Source: Maribacter algarum (ex Lu et al. 2025) (nom. illeg.)
Lineage (GTDB): Bacteria > Bacteroidota > Bacteroidia > Flavobacteriales > Flavobacteriaceae
Assembly: GCA_947495915.1 (NCBI GenBank)
Contig: CANMAW010000003.1
Span: 186,001-250,000 of the forward strand
Direction of reading: 5' to 3'
DNA length: 64,000 bases
Under the pieces are notes generated by a model. It saw nothing but the letters and a program-made list of their open reading frames with translations. It was not told the origin of the DNA and made no database searches. The stretch's first letter is position 1. Every line of letters starts with the position of its first letter. The position numbers and the translations under genes were made by a program. This document shows, piece by piece, positions 29,325-36,822 of the stretch.

Positions 29325-30794
29325 TTATACAATTGGTTTCATTGCAGTCATTGATTCTCTTAGACGAGCTCCTACAATTTCGACAGGATGCTCTCTAAGT
29401 GCCTTGTTAACCATAATGAGTTTGGCATTATCTACACCACTACCTTCTTCGTAACCTTTGCCAATAACATTGGTCTCTACCTTCTTCATAAAGTCAGTTA
29501 ATAAAGGCTTACATGCATGATCGAATAAATAGCAACCATATTCAGCGGTATCAGAAATTACACGATTCATTTCAAACAACTTCTTTCTTGCAATAGTGTT
29601 TGCAATTAATGGTGTTTCATGTAAAGACTCGTAATAAGCAGATTCGCCGATAATACCTGATTCGGTCATACTCTCGTATGCTAACTCAACTCCCGCTCTT
29701 ACCATGGCAACCATTAGAACACCATGATCATAGTATTCTTGTTCTGAAATTTCGACATCTGCAGCAGCAGTTTTTTCAAAAGCCGTTTCACCGGTAGCTG
29801 CTCTCCACCCTAATAAATTCTTATCATCATTGGCCCAATCTTCCATCATTGTTTTTGAGAAATGACCCGTCATAATATCATCCATATGCTTTTGAAATAA
29901 TGGTCTCATGATATCTTTCAACTCTTCTGATAATTCAAAAGCTTTAATTTTTGCAGGATTTGACAAGCGATCCATCATGTTGGTAATACCGCCATACTTC
30001 ATTCCTTCTGTGATAGTTTCCCAACCATATTGAATTAATTTTGAAGCATACCCCGCATCAATCCCTTTTTCGACCATTTTATCAAAACAAAGAATACTAC
30101 CGGTTTGCAGTAAGCCACAAAGAATGGTCTGCTCTCCCATTAAATCTGATTTCACCTCAGCAACAAAAGAAGATTCTAAAACACCTGCACGATGACCACC
30201 GGTACCTGCAGCATAGGCTTTAGCTTGTTCTAAACCTTTTCCTTCAGGGTCATTCTCTGGATGCACAGCAATAAGTGTTGGCACACCAAAACCTCTTTTG
30301 TATTCTTCACGTACTTCAGAACCTGGACTTTTAGGTGCCACCATAATTACGGTAAGATCTTCTCTAACTTGTGTTCCTTCTTCAACAATATTAAACCCGT
30401 GCGAGTACGAAAGTGTTGCGCCTTTTTTCATTAATGGAATTACAGCTGTAACTACTGCTGTATGTTGTTTATCTGGTGTCAAATTGATAACCAAATCGGC
30501 TGAAGGTATTAACTCGTCATACGTACCAACCGTAAATCCATTTTCAGTGGCATTTACAAAAGATTGTCTTTTCTCTTTAATAGCTGCATCACGTAAGGTG
30601 TAAGCTATATCTAAGCCTGAATCGCGCATGTTTAAACCTTGATTTAAACCTTGAGCACCACACCCTATGATTACAATCTTTTTTCCTTTTAAAACAGATA
30701 CACCATCAGAGAATTCACTTGCATCCATAAAACGACACTTACCCAACTGGGTCAATTGATCTCGTAAGGATAGTGTATTAAAATAATTTGCCAT
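29325..30794 (-). CDS. ilvC: Ketol-acid reductoisomerase (class II)
   Basis: NADPH- and Mg-dependent enzyme converting 2-acetolactate or 2-aceto-2-hydroxybutyrate to the dihydroxy acids of valine, leucine and isoleucine synthesis. The Rossmann motif is [10 protein letters not shown] near residue 45. The 489-residue length with duplicated C-terminal knotted domain marks class II (E. coli-like), distinct from the ~330-residue class I. Acid metal ligands fall in [13 protein letters not shown]. It is the last gene of ilvD-ilvB-methyltransferase-ilvN-ilvC. The 63-bp gap from ilvN contains a small hairpin. Confidence 0.97.
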
Positions 30795-30857: not shown

Positions 30858-31382
30858 TTATACTTTTAATTCTTTTAAAAGAGCTGAAATTTGCATTTCA
30901 TCTTTAGTAACTGAAATTCGACCAGAACGAACGAATTGCATAATTCCATAAGGTTTAAGCTGCTCATACATCTCATCAATTTCAGGTCTTCTACCCGATT
31001 TTGCTAACACGAAAAATTCACGCGACACGGTTACAATTTGAGAATTACTCTCTTTAATAATATTTTGTATTTGACGCTCATCAAAAAGCAAAGCTGAGTC
31101 AATTTTAAATAATGCAGATTCTTGATATATAGTCTCATCATCTTTGTGGTAAAAAGCTTTGATAACTTCAATCTGCTTTTCAATTTGACCAACTATATTA
31201 TGTACCCATTGTTCTGTTGTATAAACAACAATAGTAAATTTTGAAACTTCATCAATCTCTGATTTAGAAACATTTAAACTCTCTATATTAATATGTCGTT
31301 TTAAAAATATACCAGAAATTCTGTTTAGAAGTCCGACATTATTTTCAGAATATACTGAAATTGTAAACCATTGATTTTTCAT
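30858..31382 (-). CDS. ilvN: Acetolactate synthase small (regulatory) subunit
   Basis: Regulatory subunit that binds valine through an ACT domain and activates the catalytic IlvB subunit. The ACT domain is visible from residue 4 onward (WFTISVYSENNVGLLNRISG, FLKRHINIESLNVS), followed by the C-terminal ALS small-subunit domain. I place the start at the ATG of 31382 (MKNQWFTISVY), which fits the family. A TTG at 31409 would add nine residues. It is 174 residues long. It is separated from ilvB by a methyltransferase gene, which is unusual. Confidence 0.94.
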   Translation of the reverse strand: MKNQWFTISVYSENNVGLLNRISGIFLKRHINIESLNVSKSEIDEVSKFTIVVYTTEQWVHNIVGQIEKQIEVIKAFYHKDDETIYQESALFKIDSALLFDERQIQNIIKESNSQIVTVSREFFVLAKSGRRPEIDEMYEQLKPYGIMQFVRSGRISVTKDEMQISALLKELKV

Positions 31383-31460
31383 TAGCTCTGATTCTATTTT
31401 CTTTATCAACTTAAGTATGTAGTTTGGCTATCATACTTAATTTTATCTCAAAGATTTTTT

Positions 31461-32042
31461 TTATTTAATTCTAACTGCAATAATTACCCCAGTAGACCAT
31501 TTCATTTTGGTTACATTAAAATCATCATGAGACTCTAGGTATGTTACTAAATTAATTACATTTTCATGATGTCCTGCTGGCCAATTAAATTGCTTTGTCA
31601 TATCATCAACAACATAAAACCCGCCAACATTTATCATATTAAGTACTACATCTAAATGGCTATACTTACCTGGCCAAGCATCGGCGAAAACAAGATCATA
31701 TTTTGCTGTGTCATTTAATTTAATCCATTTCGAAGCATCTTCACATACTAAGGTCAAACGTTCATCACTACCAAAATACTGATTGGCTATTTCTATTAAT
31801 TGAATATCATTATCTACAGATACTAATTTGGATTTTGAATCCATTCCATCTAACATCCAAGATAGTGACAAGCCAATACCTGTACCAAGCTCTAAAAAGT
31901 TACCTGCTGGCTTACTAGAAATTAAGGTTTTAAGTAAAGTACCAATATATTTATCAGATGGCATCGTAAATCCGATTTCAACGGATTTCCTTTCCAACTC
32001 CTCCCAAATTAATGGCATATCTGAAATGATAGATTCATTCAT
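31461..32042 (-). CDS. Class I SAM-dependent methyltransferase inside the ilv operon
   Basis: A 193-residue Rossmann-fold methyltransferase. Motif I is FLELGTGIGLSLSWM, the acidic ribose-binding residue lies in VSVDND, motif IV is YDLVFADAWPGKYSHLD, and GGFYVVDDMTKQ follows. It resembles small-molecule O-methyltransferases with MPSDKYIG before motif I. It starts 10 bp after ilvB and ends 78 bp before ilvN, all on one strand, so it is almost surely cotranscribed with the ilv genes. Valine and isoleucine synthesis has no methylation step, so its role is unknown. Confidence 0.85.
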   Translation of the reverse strand: MNESIISDMPLIWEELERKSVEIGFTMPSDKYIGTLLKTLISSKPAGNFLELGTGIGLSLSWMLDGMDSKSKLVSVDNDIQLIEIANQYFGSDERLTLVCEDASKWIKLNDTAKYDLVFADAWPGKYSHLDVVLNMINVGGFYVVDDMTKQFNWPAGHHENVINLVTYLESHDDFNVTKMKWSTGVIIAVRIK

Positions 32043-32052
32043 ATTTTCTAAC

Positions 32053-33786
32053 CTATTTCAATCGAATATCAGAAACTGATGCCCCTGAAGGAATCATTGG
32101 AAATACATTATCTTCTTTCTCTACCTTTACTTCTAAGAAATAAGGCTTATCTGAAGCTATCATTGTTTCAATAGTGGCTTTCAAATCTTCACGTTTTGAT
32201 ACCCGTTTTGCCTCAATATGATATCCTTCCGCAATTTTTACAAAATCAGGATTTACCATTACCGTTGACGCATAACGTTTATCAAAAAACAATTCTTGCC
32301 ATTGTCGAACCATGCCCAAATGATCATTATTCAATACCACAATTTTAACTGGAATCTGGTGCTGAAAAATTACACCTAATTCTTGAATAGTCATTTGGTA
32401 ACCACCATCACCTATAATTGCCACAACTTCGCGATCCATTGCACCTTGTTTTGCTCCTATTGCAGCAGGCAAGCCAAACCCCATAGTGCCAAGTCCGCCA
32501 GAGGTAATATTACTTTTTGACTGTGCAAATTTCGCATATCTACATGCAATCATTTGATGTTGACCAACATCAGAAACAATAACCGCTTTATTCTTCGAAG
32601 CTATATTGATTTGTTCAATAACTTCGCCCATGGTTAAGCCTTCTTTGGTAGGGTGAATATCATTTTTAATTACCTGTTCAAATTCAATATCTCTTTTTTT
32701 CTTAAACTCATTATTCCAATCTTCATGCGAACTCTTTTCAAGTTTAGGAAGTAGTAAGGCTAGTGTTTCTTTAGAGTTTCCTAACACCGCTACATCTGCA
32801 GGTACATTTTTATTAATCTCTGCAGGATCTATCTCAAAATGAACCACCTTTGCTTGTTTAGCATAAGTATCTAAACTTCCGGTAACACGATCATCGAATC
32901 GCATACCTACCGCTATGAGTACATCGCATTCATTGGTTAATATATTTGGCCCATAATTACCATGCATTCCGACCATACCAACGTTTAACGGGTGATTGGT
33001 GGGTATGGCAGATTCTCCCATAATCGTCCATGCAGCTGGTATTCCTGCTTTTTCAATTACTGCTTTTAGTTCTTCTTCAGCTTCTCCAAGAATAACCCCT
33101 TGACCCCAAACAATGAATGGTTTTTTTGCTTTATTTATAAGCGCTGCTGCCGCATCTATTGCACCCATATTAGGCTTAGGAGCCGGATTATAACTTCGAA
33201 CACCCTTGCATTTTTCGTATGAAAATTCAAATTCATCGAACTGAGCATTTTTGGTAATATCAACTAATACAGGGCCTGGTCTACCAGACTTTGCTATAAA
33301 AAATGCTTTTGCTAAAATTTCAGGAATTTCTGAAGCCTTAGTTATTTGATAATTCCATTTCGTAACGGGTGTAGAAATGCCAATTATATCGGTTTCTTGA
33401 AAGGCATCAGACCCCAACAAATGTCTTGGTACTTGGCCTGTAATACAAACCATAGGAGTAGAATCAATTTGTGCATCAGCTAGACCAGTAACCAAATTTG
33501 TAGCACCAGGGCCAGATGTAGCCATTGCGACACCTACTCTACCAGAAACTCTTGCGTACCCTTGTGCTGCATGTGTTGCACCTTGTTCATGCCTGGTTAA
33601 AATATGCGTCAATTTATCTTGAAACTTATACAACTCATCATAAACAGGCATAATTGCACCACCTGGGTAACCATACAATAAGTCGACTCCTTCTGCTAAT
33701 AAACAATGTATAATAGCCTCAGCACCAGATATTTTAATGGTTGACTTTGGTTTCGATGAACTTTGTTTTTCCTTTATTGTTTCCAT
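32053..33786 (-). CDS. ilvB: Acetolactate synthase large (catalytic) subunit
   Basis: Thiamine-diphosphate and FAD enzyme condensing two pyruvates to 2-acetolactate, or pyruvate with 2-oxobutyrate for isoleucine. Visible are the catalytic Glu region in RHEQGATHAAQGYAR, the FAD-domain segment GMHGNYGPN, and the TPP/Mg motif from GDGGYQM to NNDHLGMV. The 577-residue length is standard. It lies 80 bp downstream of ilvD and 10 bp upstream of the methyltransferase gene. Confidence 0.97.
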   Translation of the reverse strand: METIKEKQSSSKPKSTIKISGAEAIIHCLLAEGVDLLYGYPGGAIMPVYDELYKFQDKLTHILTRHEQGATHAAQGYARVSGRVGVAMATSGPGATNLVTGLADAQIDSTPMVCITGQVPRHLLGSDAFQETDIIGISTPVTKWNYQITKASEIPEILAKAFFIAKSGRPGPVLVDITKNAQFDEFEFSYEKCKGVRSYNPAPKPNMGAIDAAAALINKAKKPFIVWGQGVILGEAEEELKAVIEKAGIPAAWTIMGESAIPTNHPLNVGMVGMHGNYGPNILTNECDVLIAVGMRFDDRVTGSLDTYAKQAKVVHFEIDPAEINKNVPADVAVLGNSKETLALLLPKLEKSSHEDWNNEFKKKRDIEFEQVIKNDIHPTKEGLTMGEVIEQINIASKNKAVIVSDVGQHQMIACRYAKFAQSKSNITSGGLGTMGFGLPAAIGAKQGAMDREVVAIIGDGGYQMTIQELGVIFQHQIPVKIVVLNNDHLGMVRQWQELFFDKRYASTVMVNPDFVKIAEGYHIEAKRVSKREDLKATIETMIASDKPYFLEVKVEKEDNVFPMIPSGASVSDIRLK

Positions 33787-33866: not shown

Positions 33867-35543
33867 TTAAAACTCATCAGTTACACAACCTTGAGCTGCT
33901 GATGATACTGACCGTGCATATTTATATAGCACTCCTTTTTTAAATTTTAATTCTGGTTGCACCCAAGATTCTTTTCTTTTTGCTAATTCTTCTGGTGAAA
34001 CATCAACGGTGATAGAATTAGTTTCAGCATCAATCGTAATAACATCGCCATCTTCAAGTAATCCTATTGTACCACCTTCTTGCGCTTCAGGAGAAATATG
34101 ACCTACTACAAAACCGTGTGTACCTCCTGAGAATCTGCCGTCTGTTATAAGTGCAACGTCTTTACCAAGCCCTGCTCCCATAATTGCAGCGGTTGGTTTA
34201 AGCATTTCTGGCATACCCGGGCCTCCTTTAGGTCCTTCATAACGAATAACCACAACATCTCCTTTTTTTACTAGTCCGGTACGTATACCATCATTGGCAT
34301 CATATTCACTATTAAAGACTTTTGCTGTTCCTTTAAACAACAGCCCTTCCTTACCTGTAATTTTTGCTACAGACCCATTTTCAGCAAGGTTGCCGTAGAG
34401 CATTCTCAAATGCCCGGTTGCCTTTATAGGCTTATCTAAGGGCATTATCACATCTTGACCTTCTTCTAAATCTGGTACATTCTCTAGATTCTCTGCTAAG
34501 GTTTTTCCTGTTACCGTTAAACAGTCTCCATGAAGTAACCCATTTTTTAATAAATACTTTAGTAAGGCTGGTATACCTCCCACACGATGAACATCTTCCA
34601 TCAAGTATTTTCCACTAGGTTTTAAATCTGCAATGAAAGGAGTAGTATCACTAATTCTTTGAAAATCTTGCAATGTAAAATCAATATCTGCTGCTCTAGC
34701 AATTGCTAAGAAATGTAGTACGGCATTTGTTGAACCTCCTGTAATTGTAACTAATCTAATAGCATTTTCTAAAGATTTTCTAGTAACAATATCTAAAGGT
34801 TTTATGTCTTTTTCAATTAGAACACGCATTTGTTTTCCTGCAGCAATACATTCTGCTTCTTTGTTTTCGCTTATTGCAGGATTTGAGGAGTTATATGGTA
34901 AAGACATTCCTAAGGCTTCAATTGCCGATGCCATGGTATTTGCCGTATACATACCACCACATGCGCCTGCACCCGGAATAGATTTTTTAATAATACTTTT
35001 AAATTCAGATTCTTGCATAGTACCTGCCACTTTCTCTCCCCATGCTTCAAAAGCAGAAACGATATCTAGTTTTTTATCATTGTGACAACCAGATGCTATG
35101 GTACCTCCATAAACCAAAATTGAAGGACGATTAAGTCGTAACATAGCCATTAATGCTCCTGGCATATTTTTATCACAACCAACTACGGTAACTAGTCCGT
35201 CATATGACATTCCTTGAACCACTGCTTCCATAGAGTCTGCTATGATATCTCTAGAAGGAAGTGAAAAACGCATTCCTGGTGTACCCATCGAAATACCATC
35301 ACTAATACCAATCGTGTTAAATATTAAACCAACCGTTTCTTTAGAATTAACACCCTCTTTCACCAACTTTGCCAAATCATTCAAATGCATGTTACAAGGG
35401 TTACCTTCGTAGCCAGTACTTGCGATACCTACTAGGGGTTTGTCAAAATCTTCATCTTTAAAACCAATAGCATAAAGCATTGCCTGTGCTGCTGGTTGGG
35501 TAGGATCTTGAGTTACATTCTTACTGTATTTATTTAGTTCCAT
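33867..35543 (-). CDS. ilvD: Dihydroxy-acid dehydratase
   Basis: Fe-S dehydratase giving 2-oxoisovalerate and 2-oxo-3-methylvalerate. Cluster cysteines are in GCDKNMPGA and [12 protein letters not shown], with another in [12 protein letters not shown]. The C-terminal domain holds [21 protein letters not shown]. The 558-residue length is normal. It is the first structural gene of the ilv operon and is preceded by a 440-bp leader that carries a BCAA-rich leader peptide and an attenuator-like terminator. Confidence 0.97.
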
Positions 35544-35589
35544 GTATCGGTATAATATTTTCTAATAATTTTTTTTCATACTGAACTTA

Positions 35590-35597
35590 CAAATATA
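35590..35597 (-). promoter_or_regulatory. Possible secondary -7 box close to ilvD
   Basis: TATATTTG on the minus strand fits TAnnTTTG and lies 46 bp before ilvD, downstream of the attenuator. No TTG is found at the usual -33 distance (the nearest is 27 bp away). If active, it would give basal transcription that bypasses attenuation. Confidence 0.3.
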
Positions 35598-35790
35598 TAA
35601 GTTTAGCTTTCTCCTATTCTTTAACAAAAGTTTTCGGTACAAATTCATTTGAATAATAAATCAACTAACTTATTGTTAATCAGATTTTTAAAATCAGTTA
35701 TTGTACCATATTCAATAGTTTGGTCTTGCTTCTAAATTGCATAAAAAATACTACCAATTTAAAGACCGTAAATTCGAATTCAATTAAAAA

Positions 35791-35826
35791 AAAAGCCTGT
35801 ATCATTTTTTAATGATACAGGCTTTT
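35791..35826 (-). terminator. Attenuator terminator of the ilv operon
   Basis: On the minus strand a perfect 16-bp hairpin (AAAAGCCTGTATCATT / AATGATACAGGCTTTT, loop AAAA) is followed by more T for a run of nine. It lies 20 nt after the stop of the BCAA-rich leader peptide and about 250 nt before ilvD. Upstream AATGATATAG (35851-35842) can pair with CTGTATCATT (35820-35811) over ten bases with one G-U pair, forming an alternative antiterminator. It may also end the pxp transcript. Confidence 0.8.
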
Positions 35827-35846
35827 CTAGTCCATAGAAATCTATA

Positions 35847-35903
35847 TCATTCCTGAATAGGAATAACAAGAGAAACACAGACCAAAATATAATTCGTTTT
35901 CAT
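35847..35903 (-). CDS. ilv operon leader peptide (18 residues, Ile/Leu/Val-rich)
   Basis: Short frame from ATG at 35903 to TGA at 35847 encoding MKTNYILVCVSLVIPIQE. Eight of 18 residues are Ile, Leu or Val, packed between positions 6 and 16. It sits directly upstream of a strong intrinsic terminator and the ilvDB-x-NC operon. TTATTCC (35866-35860, within the Val-Ile-Pro codons) can pair with GGAATGA (35853-35847, over the stop codon), and that segment overlaps the antiterminator strand. This is the layout of ribosome-mediated attenuation: stalling at control codons would free the antiterminator, while a ribosome reaching the stop would cover it. Expression was not shown. Confidence 0.75.
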   Translation of the reverse strand: MKTNYILVCVSLVIPIQE

Positions 35904-35908
35904 GCTTT

Positions 35909-35936
35909 CAAAATTATATAAAAAAGTTAATATCAA
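35909..35936 (-). promoter_or_regulatory. Promoter of the ilv leader
   Basis: TTG at 35936-35934 and TAATTTTG at 35916-35909 are separated by 17 bp, matching the Bacteroidota TTG/TAnnTTTG promoter. The expected transcription start is within a few bases of the leader ATG (35903), so the leader transcript may have almost no 5' UTR. Confidence 0.6.
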
Positions 35937-35982
35937 GAGGAAATTGAGAAAAAATAAAAGATTTTTCTTAAAACGTTACGAA

Positions 35983-36822
35983 TTACACAAGTTTAAAAGA
36001 CACCTCATCTTTATATTTCTTTTGCGCTAAGATAGATATTGCCTTATCTGACAATTGCAAAATTCGAGGATAACCACCTGTGGTTTGACCATCTTTCATT
36101 AATATTATTAATTTACCCGATGGTGTTAGTTGTATCGTACCCGGTAAAGTTGCGGAAGTTAACATATTATACTTGTGCTGTTCTATCATTTCCTCCAATT
36201 GATACGCCATTCTGTTGTACTCTTTAGCGATGGTAAATTTTTTCGAAAATAAACGCTCTAGCTGTCTGTCACTCAAAAGTTGAAATTCCGGCCCTTTAGA
36301 TACTTCCAATTTACTTTCCGCTAAAAAAGATCCGATCTGTAACGCTGTTAACTTTGGACTATAATTTTCGCAAACATCAATTTCTATTTCAACTCCATCT
36401 TTTAATTGGCTTTGTTCGGTTATAGGATAAAAATAAGAACGACTATCAAGAATAGCAGGTACTTGAAACCCGCCTTTAACCGCCAAATAGTTTCGAAAGC
36501 CTTTAACCAATTTACCATAAGATAATATATCGCCTTTTTGAACCTGATATACCTTAAAATGCTGAATAGGGTTATTATTCAAGGTCATTAGAATATCTGC
36601 TCCGCCAGCACAGAAAAAGGTAGGCTTTAGAAATTCTATAGTTGGCCCTGTCATGGTAATTTCCATAACAGCAGCATTGGTTTCGTTTTCTAATAGTTTA
36701 TTTAATCTAGTTGCAGAAAAACTATCCATAACACCAGCAACCGGAACTCCTTTATTCAACAAACCAAAACGACCATTATCTTGAATAGTACTAAAAAAAC
36801 CAGCCTTTAGAACTCTAAGCAT
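35983..36822 (-). CDS. pxpC: 5-oxoprolinase subunit C (KipA/PxpC, biotin-dependent carboxyltransferase-like)
   Basis: Third subunit of the prokaryotic ATP-dependent 5-oxoprolinase PxpABC, which opens 5-oxoproline to glutamate. The CT_A_B-type domain is seen in IQDNGRFGLLNKGVPVAGVMD, AGGADI, FRNYLAVKGGF and the end PSGKLIILMKDGQTTGGYPRI. At 279 residues it is a single-domain form, short beside KipA proteins of about 310-330 residues. It overlaps pxpB by 8 bp, and the operon has no other terminator before the ilv leader. Confidence 0.92.
   Translation of the reverse strand: MLRVLKAGFFSTIQDNGRFGLLNKGVPVAGVMDSFSATRLNKLLENETNAAVMEITMTGPTIEFLKPTFFCAGGADILMTLNNNPIQHFKVYQVQKGDILSYGKLVKGFRNYLAVKGGFQVPAILDSRSYFYPITEQSQLKDGVEIEIDVCENYSPKLTALQIGSFLAESKLEVSKGPEFQLLSDRQLERLFSKKFTIAKEYNRMAYQLEEMIEQHKYNMLTSATLPGTIQLTPSGKLIILMKDGQTTGGYPRILQLSDKAISILAQKKYKDEVSFKLV

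What the first reader, a model, noticed from the sequence alone, without database searches (positions are those of the whole stretch)
35786..35936. Ribosome-mediated attenuator with BCAA-rich leader peptide ahead of the ilv operon
An 18-codon frame with eight Ile/Leu/Val codons is followed by a 16-bp hairpin with a nine-T tail, then ilvD. Three mutually exclusive pairings can be drawn on the minus strand. 1:2 is TTATTCC (35866-35860) with GGAATGA (35853-35847). 2:3 is AATGATATAG (35851-35842) with CTGTATCATT (35820-35811), ten pairs with one G-U. 3:4 is the terminator. The leader stop codon lies inside segment 2, so a ribosome finishing the peptide would block 2:3 and favour termination, while stalling at BCAA codons would allow 2:3. 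This mirrors enteric ilv and leu attenuators, here in a flavobacterium. The bare terminator could also serve the upstream pxp operon, but the leader and 2:3 pairing are not needed for that.
Basis: partly seen in the sequence, partly recalled or inferred. Interest (0 to 1): 0.82.

Follow-up and report, generated by a model that had tools for sequence, protein, structure and literature searches.

The report
Leaderless BCAA attenuator before ilvD
A flavobacterium related to Maribacter appears to switch its isoleucine/valine synthesis genes on and off by letting a ribosome read a tiny test peptide rich in those amino acids, and relatives carry the same kind of device, sometimes two or three in a row.

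Summary
Window 35903-35786 (minus) carries an 18-codon BCAA-rich frame, a two-tier 1:2 hairpin larger than described, a 2:3 antiterminator and a terminator, ahead of ilvD-ilvB-x-ilvN-ilvC. It is kept in 11 of 13 genus loci; 62 leaders were aligned. Ile/Leu/Val fill 77% of codons -12 to -5 before segment 2, against 36% and 3% in other frames. 1:2 and 3:4 covary; 2:3 pairs in 97.4% of cells, 23-43% when slid, without compensation beyond shuffles. Simulated stalls at codons 4-15 free the antiterminator; no ribosome, or one at the stop, does not. Relatives carry a second type; 17 of 80 named loci hold two in tandem. No Rfam match at gathering score. A new member of a known kind; same-signal tandem arrays in relatives are the novel part. 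No expression data.

The parts
35934..35936 (-). possible -33 TTG element of promoter P1 (weak)
   Evidence: read by eye; 17 nt before the -7 box; not tested
35909..35916 (-). P1 -7 box TAATTTTG (Bacteroidota sigma-A TAnnTTTG), ends 5 nt before the leader AUG
   Evidence: similar box in 40 of 48 single copies, shuffle mean 3.7, 0 of 14 tandem second copies (shuffle mean 0.8); placement -12 to -5 from PMC9723704
35847..35903 (-). leader ORF MKTNYILVCVSLVIPIQE*
   Evidence: 62 aligned leaders, frame-specific ILV enrichment
35859..35884 (-). segment 1 (outer arm 35884-35876, inner arm 35871-35859), inside the leader codons
   Evidence: folds; covariation
35828..35854 (-). segment 2 side of the 1:2 hairpin (inner arm 35854-35841, outer arm 35836-35828); antiterminator half 35851-35842 holds the leader stop
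35811..35820 (-). segment 3: pairs with segment 2 (antiterminator) or segment 4 (terminator)
35786..35828 (-). intrinsic terminator 3:4 with nine-T tail
   Evidence: covariation
35703..35715 (-). conserved block TTGAATATGGTAC between terminator and P2, possibly an operator (unknown)
   Evidence: similar block seen by eye in genus loci and in loci lacking the attenuator
35590..35597 (-). P2 -7 box TATATTTG, 46 nt before ilvD
   Evidence: TAnnTTTG in the tested interval in 12 of 13 genus loci (shuffle mean 1.5) and 39 of 80 named loci (7.6)
33867..35543 (-). ilvD, dihydroxy-acid dehydratase
   Evidence: NCBIfam above cut-off
32053..33786 (-). ilvB, acetolactate synthase large subunit
   Evidence: TIGR00118 above cut-off
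31461..32042 (-). 193-aa ORF inside the operon, methyltransferase-like by eye
   Evidence: no NCBIfam match at E<=1e-20
30858..31409 (-). ilvN, acetolactate synthase small subunit
   Evidence: TIGR00119 above cut-off
29325..30794 (-). ilvC, ketol-acid reductoisomerase
   Evidence: NF003557 and TIGR00465 above cut-off

Best explanation
A ribosome-mediated transcription attenuator of the ilv operon. Inferred: RNA polymerase starts at P1 within about one nucleotide of the leader AUG, so a ribosome loads on a leaderless 5' end. With enough charged Ile-, Leu- and Val-tRNA it reaches the stop codon, which lies in segment 2, covers segment 2, and the terminator 3:4 forms. With BCAA-tRNA short it stalls in the run of Ile/Leu/Val codons, covers segment 1, segment 2 is free to pair with segment 3 before segment 4 is made, and polymerase reads on into ilvD-ilvB-x-ilvN-ilvC. 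With no translation 1:2 forms and termination is the default. P2, just before ilvD, probably gives a second, attenuator-independent input. Shown here: the sequence features, their conservation, covariation of 1:2 and 3:4, and the stall energetics in silico. Not shown: transcription start, termination, translation, response to BCAA.
For: Leader and terminator in 11 of the 13 genus genomes that have a full-length ilvD, and in 27 of 27 fetched out-of-genus top hits of a model built from those 11, all upstream of ilvD on its strand. ILV at codons -12 to -5 is 0.63, 0.79, 0.47, 0.81, 0.89, 0.85, 0.95, 0.81, then 0.13 at -4; frame 0 77%, other frames 36% and 3%, shuffled 32%. In 48 of 62 the stop's first base is segment 2's first base (the script prints this as -1). 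1:2: 141 compensatory cells against 53.7 shuffled; 3:4: 40 against 8.3. 2:3 97.4% paired, slid 23-43%. Window simulation: P(2:3) 0.74-1.0 for stalls at codons 4-15, about 0 with no ribosome or at the stop. All 62: best stall at an ILV codon gives P(2:3)>0.5 in 62, ribosome at stop <0.1 in 58, P(3:4)>0.9 in 60. -7 box in 40 of 48 single copies, 0 of 14 tandem second copies.
Against: No expression, termination or ribosome data. At equilibrium the full-length window RNA always folds as terminator, so antitermination must be kinetic. Segment 3 is nearly invariant, so 2:3 has a single double change and does not beat shuffles (165 of 500; paired cells 212 of 500). In 17 of 62 sequences (not the window) 2:3 forms without any ribosome, so default termination is not general, and 35 of 62 pass every simulated criterion. 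2 of 13 genus loci lack it and 21 of 80 named loci have no model hit at E<=1e-6 (one of them, L148, holds only 294 nt upstream). P2 could bypass the attenuator. The -7 box pattern was chosen after seeing the sequences, and type B leaders mostly fail it (4 of 24, shuffle mean 1.9).
Confidence: 0.9

Rival explanations
1. The hairpin is simply the transcription terminator of the upstream pxp operon and the short frame is chance.
For: In the window the pxpC-like gene ends 79 nt before the leader and no other terminator-like site was found before it.
Against: Frame, 1:2 and 2:3 are conserved and the ILV content is frame-specific. In 6 of 11 genus members another gene with its own terminator lies upstream (by eye). 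All 27 fetched out-of-genus top model hits sit upstream of ilvD, two of them with ilvE between.
Confidence: 0.03
2. It is an attenuator by descent, but P2 carries nearly all ilv transcription in this organism, so the attenuator has little effect on enzyme levels.
For: TAnnTTTG before ilvD in 12 of 13 genus loci; loci without the attenuator keep a similar P2 region (by eye).
Against: Covariation and stop placement show the attenuator is under selection in the family.
Confidence: 0.2
3. The leader responds to general translation slow-down or to one amino acid only (for example Val) rather than to all three.
For: In the window, codons permitting 2:3 include N, Y, C and S positions as well as ILV.
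Against: 439 of 494 ILV codons in 62 leaders fall in the permissive interval, and the ILV run is a conserved feature.
Confidence: 0.2
4. The short leader transcript acts in trans as a small RNA.
For: It would be about 118 nt long and stable.
Against: No Rfam match at gathering score (only weak ones); the strong copies I read lie in cis before ilv genes.
Confidence: 0.03

Closest known systems
ilvBNC attenuator (ilvL) of Corynebacterium glutamicum
   Same: BCAA-rich leader of 15 codons, transcription start one nucleotide from the leader start codon, no ribosome binding site, terminator hairpin, three promoters in the operon (PMC11857589, passages read)
   Different: Different phylum; no sequence relation tested; gene order differs; here a conserved promoter-like box lies between terminator and first gene; relatives of the window carry tandem copies
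Enteric ilvGMEDA, ivbL and leu attenuators (recalled, no call)
   Same: Segments 1-4, BCAA codon run, stop codon near segment 2, rho-independent terminator
   Different: Enteric leaders are translated from a Shine-Dalgarno site (recalled); here the AUG is predicted at the 5' end
Leader-peptide attenuation clues in Flavobacterium psychrophilum
   Same: Same family; the paper reports strong clues for leader peptide attenuation upstream of amino-acid biosynthesis operons (PMC9723704, passages read)
   Different: The main text has 0 occurrences of ilv; its Table S7 could not be read here, so overlap is possible
Tandem attenuators of Salmonella mgtCBR
   Same: Two leader ORFs with tandem attenuators in one leader (PMC3641672, abstract read)
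   Different: There the two sense different signals (ATP, proline); in the flavobacterial relatives both leaders are BCAA-rich. The window has only one

Membership tests
Ribosome-mediated (leader-peptide) transcription attenuator | Short ORF enriched in codons of the operon's product, conserved as a frame | tested here: met
   8 of 18 codons; 62 leaders, frame 0 77% ILV against 36% and 3%
Ribosome-mediated (leader-peptide) transcription attenuator | Rho-independent terminator before the first structural gene | tested here: met
Ribosome-mediated (leader-peptide) transcription attenuator | Alternative antiterminator 2:3 excluding the terminator | tested here: met
   97.4% of cells paired, slid 23-43%; no compensatory support because segment 3 is nearly invariant
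Ribosome-mediated (leader-peptide) transcription attenuator | 1:2 hairpin that sequesters segment 2 without a ribosome | tested here: met
   Window P(2:3) 0.001 without ribosome; covariation; P(2:3) above 0.5 without ribosome in 17 of 62
Ribosome-mediated (leader-peptide) transcription attenuator | Control codons placed so that stalling frees segment 2 and the stop covers it | tested here: met
Ribosome-mediated (leader-peptide) transcription attenuator | Polymerase pause at the 1:2 hairpin | not tested
   needs in vitro transcription
Ribosome-mediated (leader-peptide) transcription attenuator | Read-through rises when the cognate charged tRNA is short | not testable with these tools
   needs experiment
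Leaderless leader peptide (Actinobacteria type) | Transcription start at or next to the leader start codon | tested here: inconclusive
   Predicted from the -7 box position only; no TSS data
Rfam release 15 RNA families, leaders and T-box included | Covariance-model match at gathering score | tested here: not met
   0 matches in the window; with relaxed threshold the only amino-acid leader family listed is Thr_leader, 22 bits against 55
Tandem attenuator (mgtCBR type) | Two leader ORF-attenuator units in one leader | tested here: not met
   Window has one unit; two units in 17 of 80 named relatives

The most novel reading that the evidence does not exclude
Flavobacteriaceae use a modular family of BCAA attenuators before ilvD, ilvE-ilvD and other ilv genes. 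Single type A copies start on leaderless mRNA; many relatives stack two (type B then A, or B then B) and one locus has three, all with BCAA-rich leaders, and second type A leaders show no promoter box of their own. Stacking would multiply the terminator response and sharpen the switch, and would need the second leader to be initiated internally or by reinitiation. Types A and B seem to place the antiterminator in different halves of an apparently homologous segment 2 (by eye).
Probability: 0.5. Interest if true: 0.72.

Novelty: new member of a known kind. Interest (0 to 1): 0.52.

Why it matters
[quoted passage not shown] A leader whose AUG is predicted at the 5' end, kept in single copies across a family, gives a clean system for asking how transcription-translation coupling works there. 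The tandem relatives allow a direct test of whether stacking same-signal attenuators steepens the response. The covariance models give a way to annotate such sites: the window and the eight relative loci that I tested have no Rfam match at gathering score.

Tried and rejected
Rejected: a plain pxp terminator (different upstream genes with their own terminators in 6 of 11 genus members, by eye); a known Rfam RNA; chance frame. Weak model hits L032 and L033 have no ilvD in the locus, L084 has no leader or ilvD, and L250, L251 and L254 look unrelated; none of these was put into an alignment. L132 (a type A site) was seen but left out of A2 because I did not place its ends. Of the hits below L067 I fetched the next 20, skipping one antisense hit and one of 77 nt. 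In one search single and tandem copies were split by a regular expression; L083 was filed as single although a type B hit lies 172 nt upstream. The reverse-strand control of the leader-plus-terminator scan gave 14 of 80 against 58 of 80, so the model-based count, 59 of 80 at E<=1e-6 (35 with type A, 24 more with type B only), is preferred. The 80 named loci are the best of a capped scan for the window's ilvD, not a random sample. Short hits (below about 95 nt) look like bare terminators and were not counted.

Literature: searches; several lists were capped. No listed title or abstract describes an ilv attenuator in Bacteroidota or tandem same-signal attenuators; only open-licence PMC papers were searched, and Vitreschak et al. 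2004 was seen only as a citation.

Full report
Observation. The leader frame is 35903-35847, MKTNYILVCVSLVIPIQE*, eight of 18 codons Ile/Leu/Val. The terminator is the only such site found in 35400-36100 (0.1 expected). The 133-nt RNA folds with z -6.7 and no shuffle of 200 as good. Hairpins 1:2 and 3:4 coexist; 2:3 excludes both.

Genus. Fourteen genomes of the genus were searched; 13 have a full-length ilvD, one only a fragment at a contig end. Reading 700 nt upstream showed the leader and terminator in 11 of 13; L009 and L013 lack them. In 6 of the 11 (L005-L008, L011, L012; by eye) the upstream gene is not pxpC-like and has its own terminator before the leader. The window's upstream gene scores below NCBIfam's PxpC cut-off, so I call it pxpC-like. 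The genus includes Maribacter algarum, inferred from equal contig length of G001:C12 and L157. A covariance model R1 was built from these 11; that it finds the same 11 at E<=1e-17 is by construction. What that search adds is that the window's genome has no comparable second copy (next hit 5.2e-5, the antisense of the same site).

Family. R1 was run on 395 family genomes. The 27 best hits outside the genus were fetched: all 27 lie upstream of ilvD on its strand, 25 within 172-250 nt and two (L053, L061) about 1.04 kb away with one gene between, ilvE by NCBIfam in L061. All 27 have a frame of 15-19 codons with 5-10 Ile/Leu/Val, starting at the model's first position in 26 and 6 nt before it in L061. 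Of the 20 next hits fetched, 19 have such a frame, 16 have ilvD in the fetched stretch, and three more have ilvD 1.05-1.13 kb downstream. With the 11 genus copies and five second copies from tandem loci this gives 62 sequences (alignment A2). The window leader is 55-76% identical to the others.

Coding. In the 62 leaders, 77% of codons -12 to -5 before segment 2 are I, L or V in frame 0, 36% and 3% in the other frames, and 32% in shuffled sequence. Per codon the values run 0.63, 0.79, 0.47, 0.81, 0.89, 0.85, 0.95, 0.81 from -12 to -5 and drop to 0.13 at -4. In 48 of 62 the first base of the stop codon is the first base of segment 2.

Structure. On A2, 1:2 has 141 compensatory cells (53.7 in shuffles) and 75.6% paired cells (40-45% when slid). 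3:4 has 40 (8.3) and 97.2%. 2:3 pairs in 97.4% of cells (23-43% slid); segment 2 changes mostly by pair-keeping transitions, but segment 3 hardly varies, so there is one double change and shuffles equal it in 165 of 500. 2:3 therefore rests on complementarity kept, not on compensation.

Mechanism in silico. With RNA made up to just before segment 4 and the RNA free from 13 nt after the first base of the A-site codon, the window gives P(2:3) 0.74-1.0 for A-site codons 4 to 15, 0.37 at 16, and about 0 at 1-3, at 17-19 and without a ribosome. Over 62 sequences the best ILV stall gives >0.5 in 62 and >0.9 in 49; a ribosome at the stop gives <0.1 in 58; P(3:4) >0.9 in 60; no ribosome gives <0.1 in 38 but >0.5 in 17; all criteria together hold in 35. 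The complete window RNA prefers the terminator in every case, so the choice must be made while segment 4 is still unmade.

Start of the leader. In Flavobacterium psychrophilum the sigma-A box TAnnTTTG lies at -12 to -5, and 5.5% of mRNAs are leaderless (PMC9723704, passages). In the window TAATTTTG ends 5 nt before the AUG, predicting a 5' UTR of about one nucleotide. A box of this kind ends within 12 nt of the start codon in 40 of 48 single type A copies (35 at 4 or 5 nt; shuffles 3.7), in 0 of 14 second copies of tandem arrays (shuffles 0.8) and in 4 of 24 type B leaders, at 9-10 nt (shuffles 1.9). The pattern was set after seeing type A sequences; the tandem copies serve as an internal contrast, and type B may use a variant box that I did not test. 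Corynebacterium glutamicum ilvL also starts one nucleotide from its AUG (PMC11857589, passages), and several Streptomyces lividans leaders are leaderless (PMC8079986, passages).

Second promoter. Between terminator and ilvD a TATATTTG box lies 46 nt before the ilvD AUG. TAnnTTTG occurs in the tested interval in 12 of 13 genus loci (shuffle mean 1.5) and in 39 of 80 named loci (7.6), mostly 40-59 nt before ilvD; 41 of 80 lack it. Upstream of it a block like TTGAATATGGTA is kept in loci where the attenuator is missing (by eye). The attenuator probably gates one of two inputs.

Second type and tandem arrays. Sixty further ilvD upstream regions of the family, chosen mostly among genomes without a strong R1 hit, were fetched and scanned by script; 26 were printed and read. 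In 24 of 60 the scan found another attenuator, type B: leader like MKKQILNIISIIVIVIISQG and usually a GCCTTCC/GGAAGGC terminator. Alignment A3 has 25. Its terminator has 9 compensatory cells against 1.5 in shuffles, though slid by one it still pairs 80% of cells. Stalls open an antiterminator (>0.5) in 25 of 25 and a ribosome at the stop closes it (<0.25) in 24 of 25, but without a ribosome it is closed in only 6 of 25. Comparing listed coordinates by hand, a type B hit precedes a type A hit on the same strand within 300 nt in 23 of 395 genomes; the lists are truncated, so this is a lower bound. In 80 named loci (the best of a capped scan) the two models find a copy in 59 at E<=1e-6, and two copies in 17: eight B-A (five Tenacibaculum and three others) and nine B-B (all Aquimarina); a separate frame-plus-terminator scan gives the same 17. 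L249 has three units in a row before ilvE, the first with a TTG start read by eye, the last two nearly identical. In 246 genomes of the order two hits lie in other families; one (L248) is a leader before ilvD, the other (L250) is not.

Place among known systems. Each sequence-level feature of a leader-peptide transcription attenuator that I list was tested and met; pausing and the response to charged tRNA were not. No Rfam family matches at gathering score (weak matches only). The flavobacterial transcriptome paper already reports clues for leader-peptide attenuation at amino-acid operons, without naming ilv in its main text. I file the window element as a new member of a known kind. Tandem use of same-signal units is what I did not find among the papers listed by the searches named above; [quoted passage not shown]

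Noticed in passing
L228-L235: A poly-asparagine leader (MKNNNNNNNFNNPKF type) with a GCCTTCC-type terminator lies before an 88-aa gatC-like ORF in 8 of 8 loci from 8 flavobacterial genomes; in the 4 loci examined further gatA-like follows, and gatB-like where the stretch reaches it. NCBIfam names them gatC, gatA and gatB, all below cut-off, gatB as fragments. A likely attenuator sensing charged Asn-tRNA at the enzyme that makes it. No such paper was listed. The window's genome has no close GatA (best 33%).
   Followed up: partly
L241, L244, L245: Histidine-rich leader (MNTQLHHHHSHICSQANRK type) and terminator before hisG (hisG above cut-off in L241; the other two by eye).
   Followed up: partly
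L242: Met/Cys-containing leader MKKQTTNMACMMCKEIYAKAIIV and terminator before an O-acetylhomoserine sulfhydrylase gene (TIGR01326 above cut-off).
   Followed up: partly
L239, L240, L243, L247, L252, L253: Ile-rich leaders with terminators before ilvA (L239 above cut-off), ilvB (L243 above cut-off) and ilvN-like genes (by eye; L247 had no NCBIfam match at E<=1e-20) in other genomes.
   Followed up: partly
L249: Three attenuator units in a row before ilvE; the last two are nearly identical, suggesting recent duplication.
   Followed up: partly
window 35703-35715: Conserved block between terminator and P2, kept where the attenuator is missing; possible regulator site.
   Followed up: no
window 31461-32042: A 193-aa methyltransferase-like ORF (by eye) sits between ilvB and ilvN; no NCBIfam match at E<=1e-20.
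   Followed up: partly
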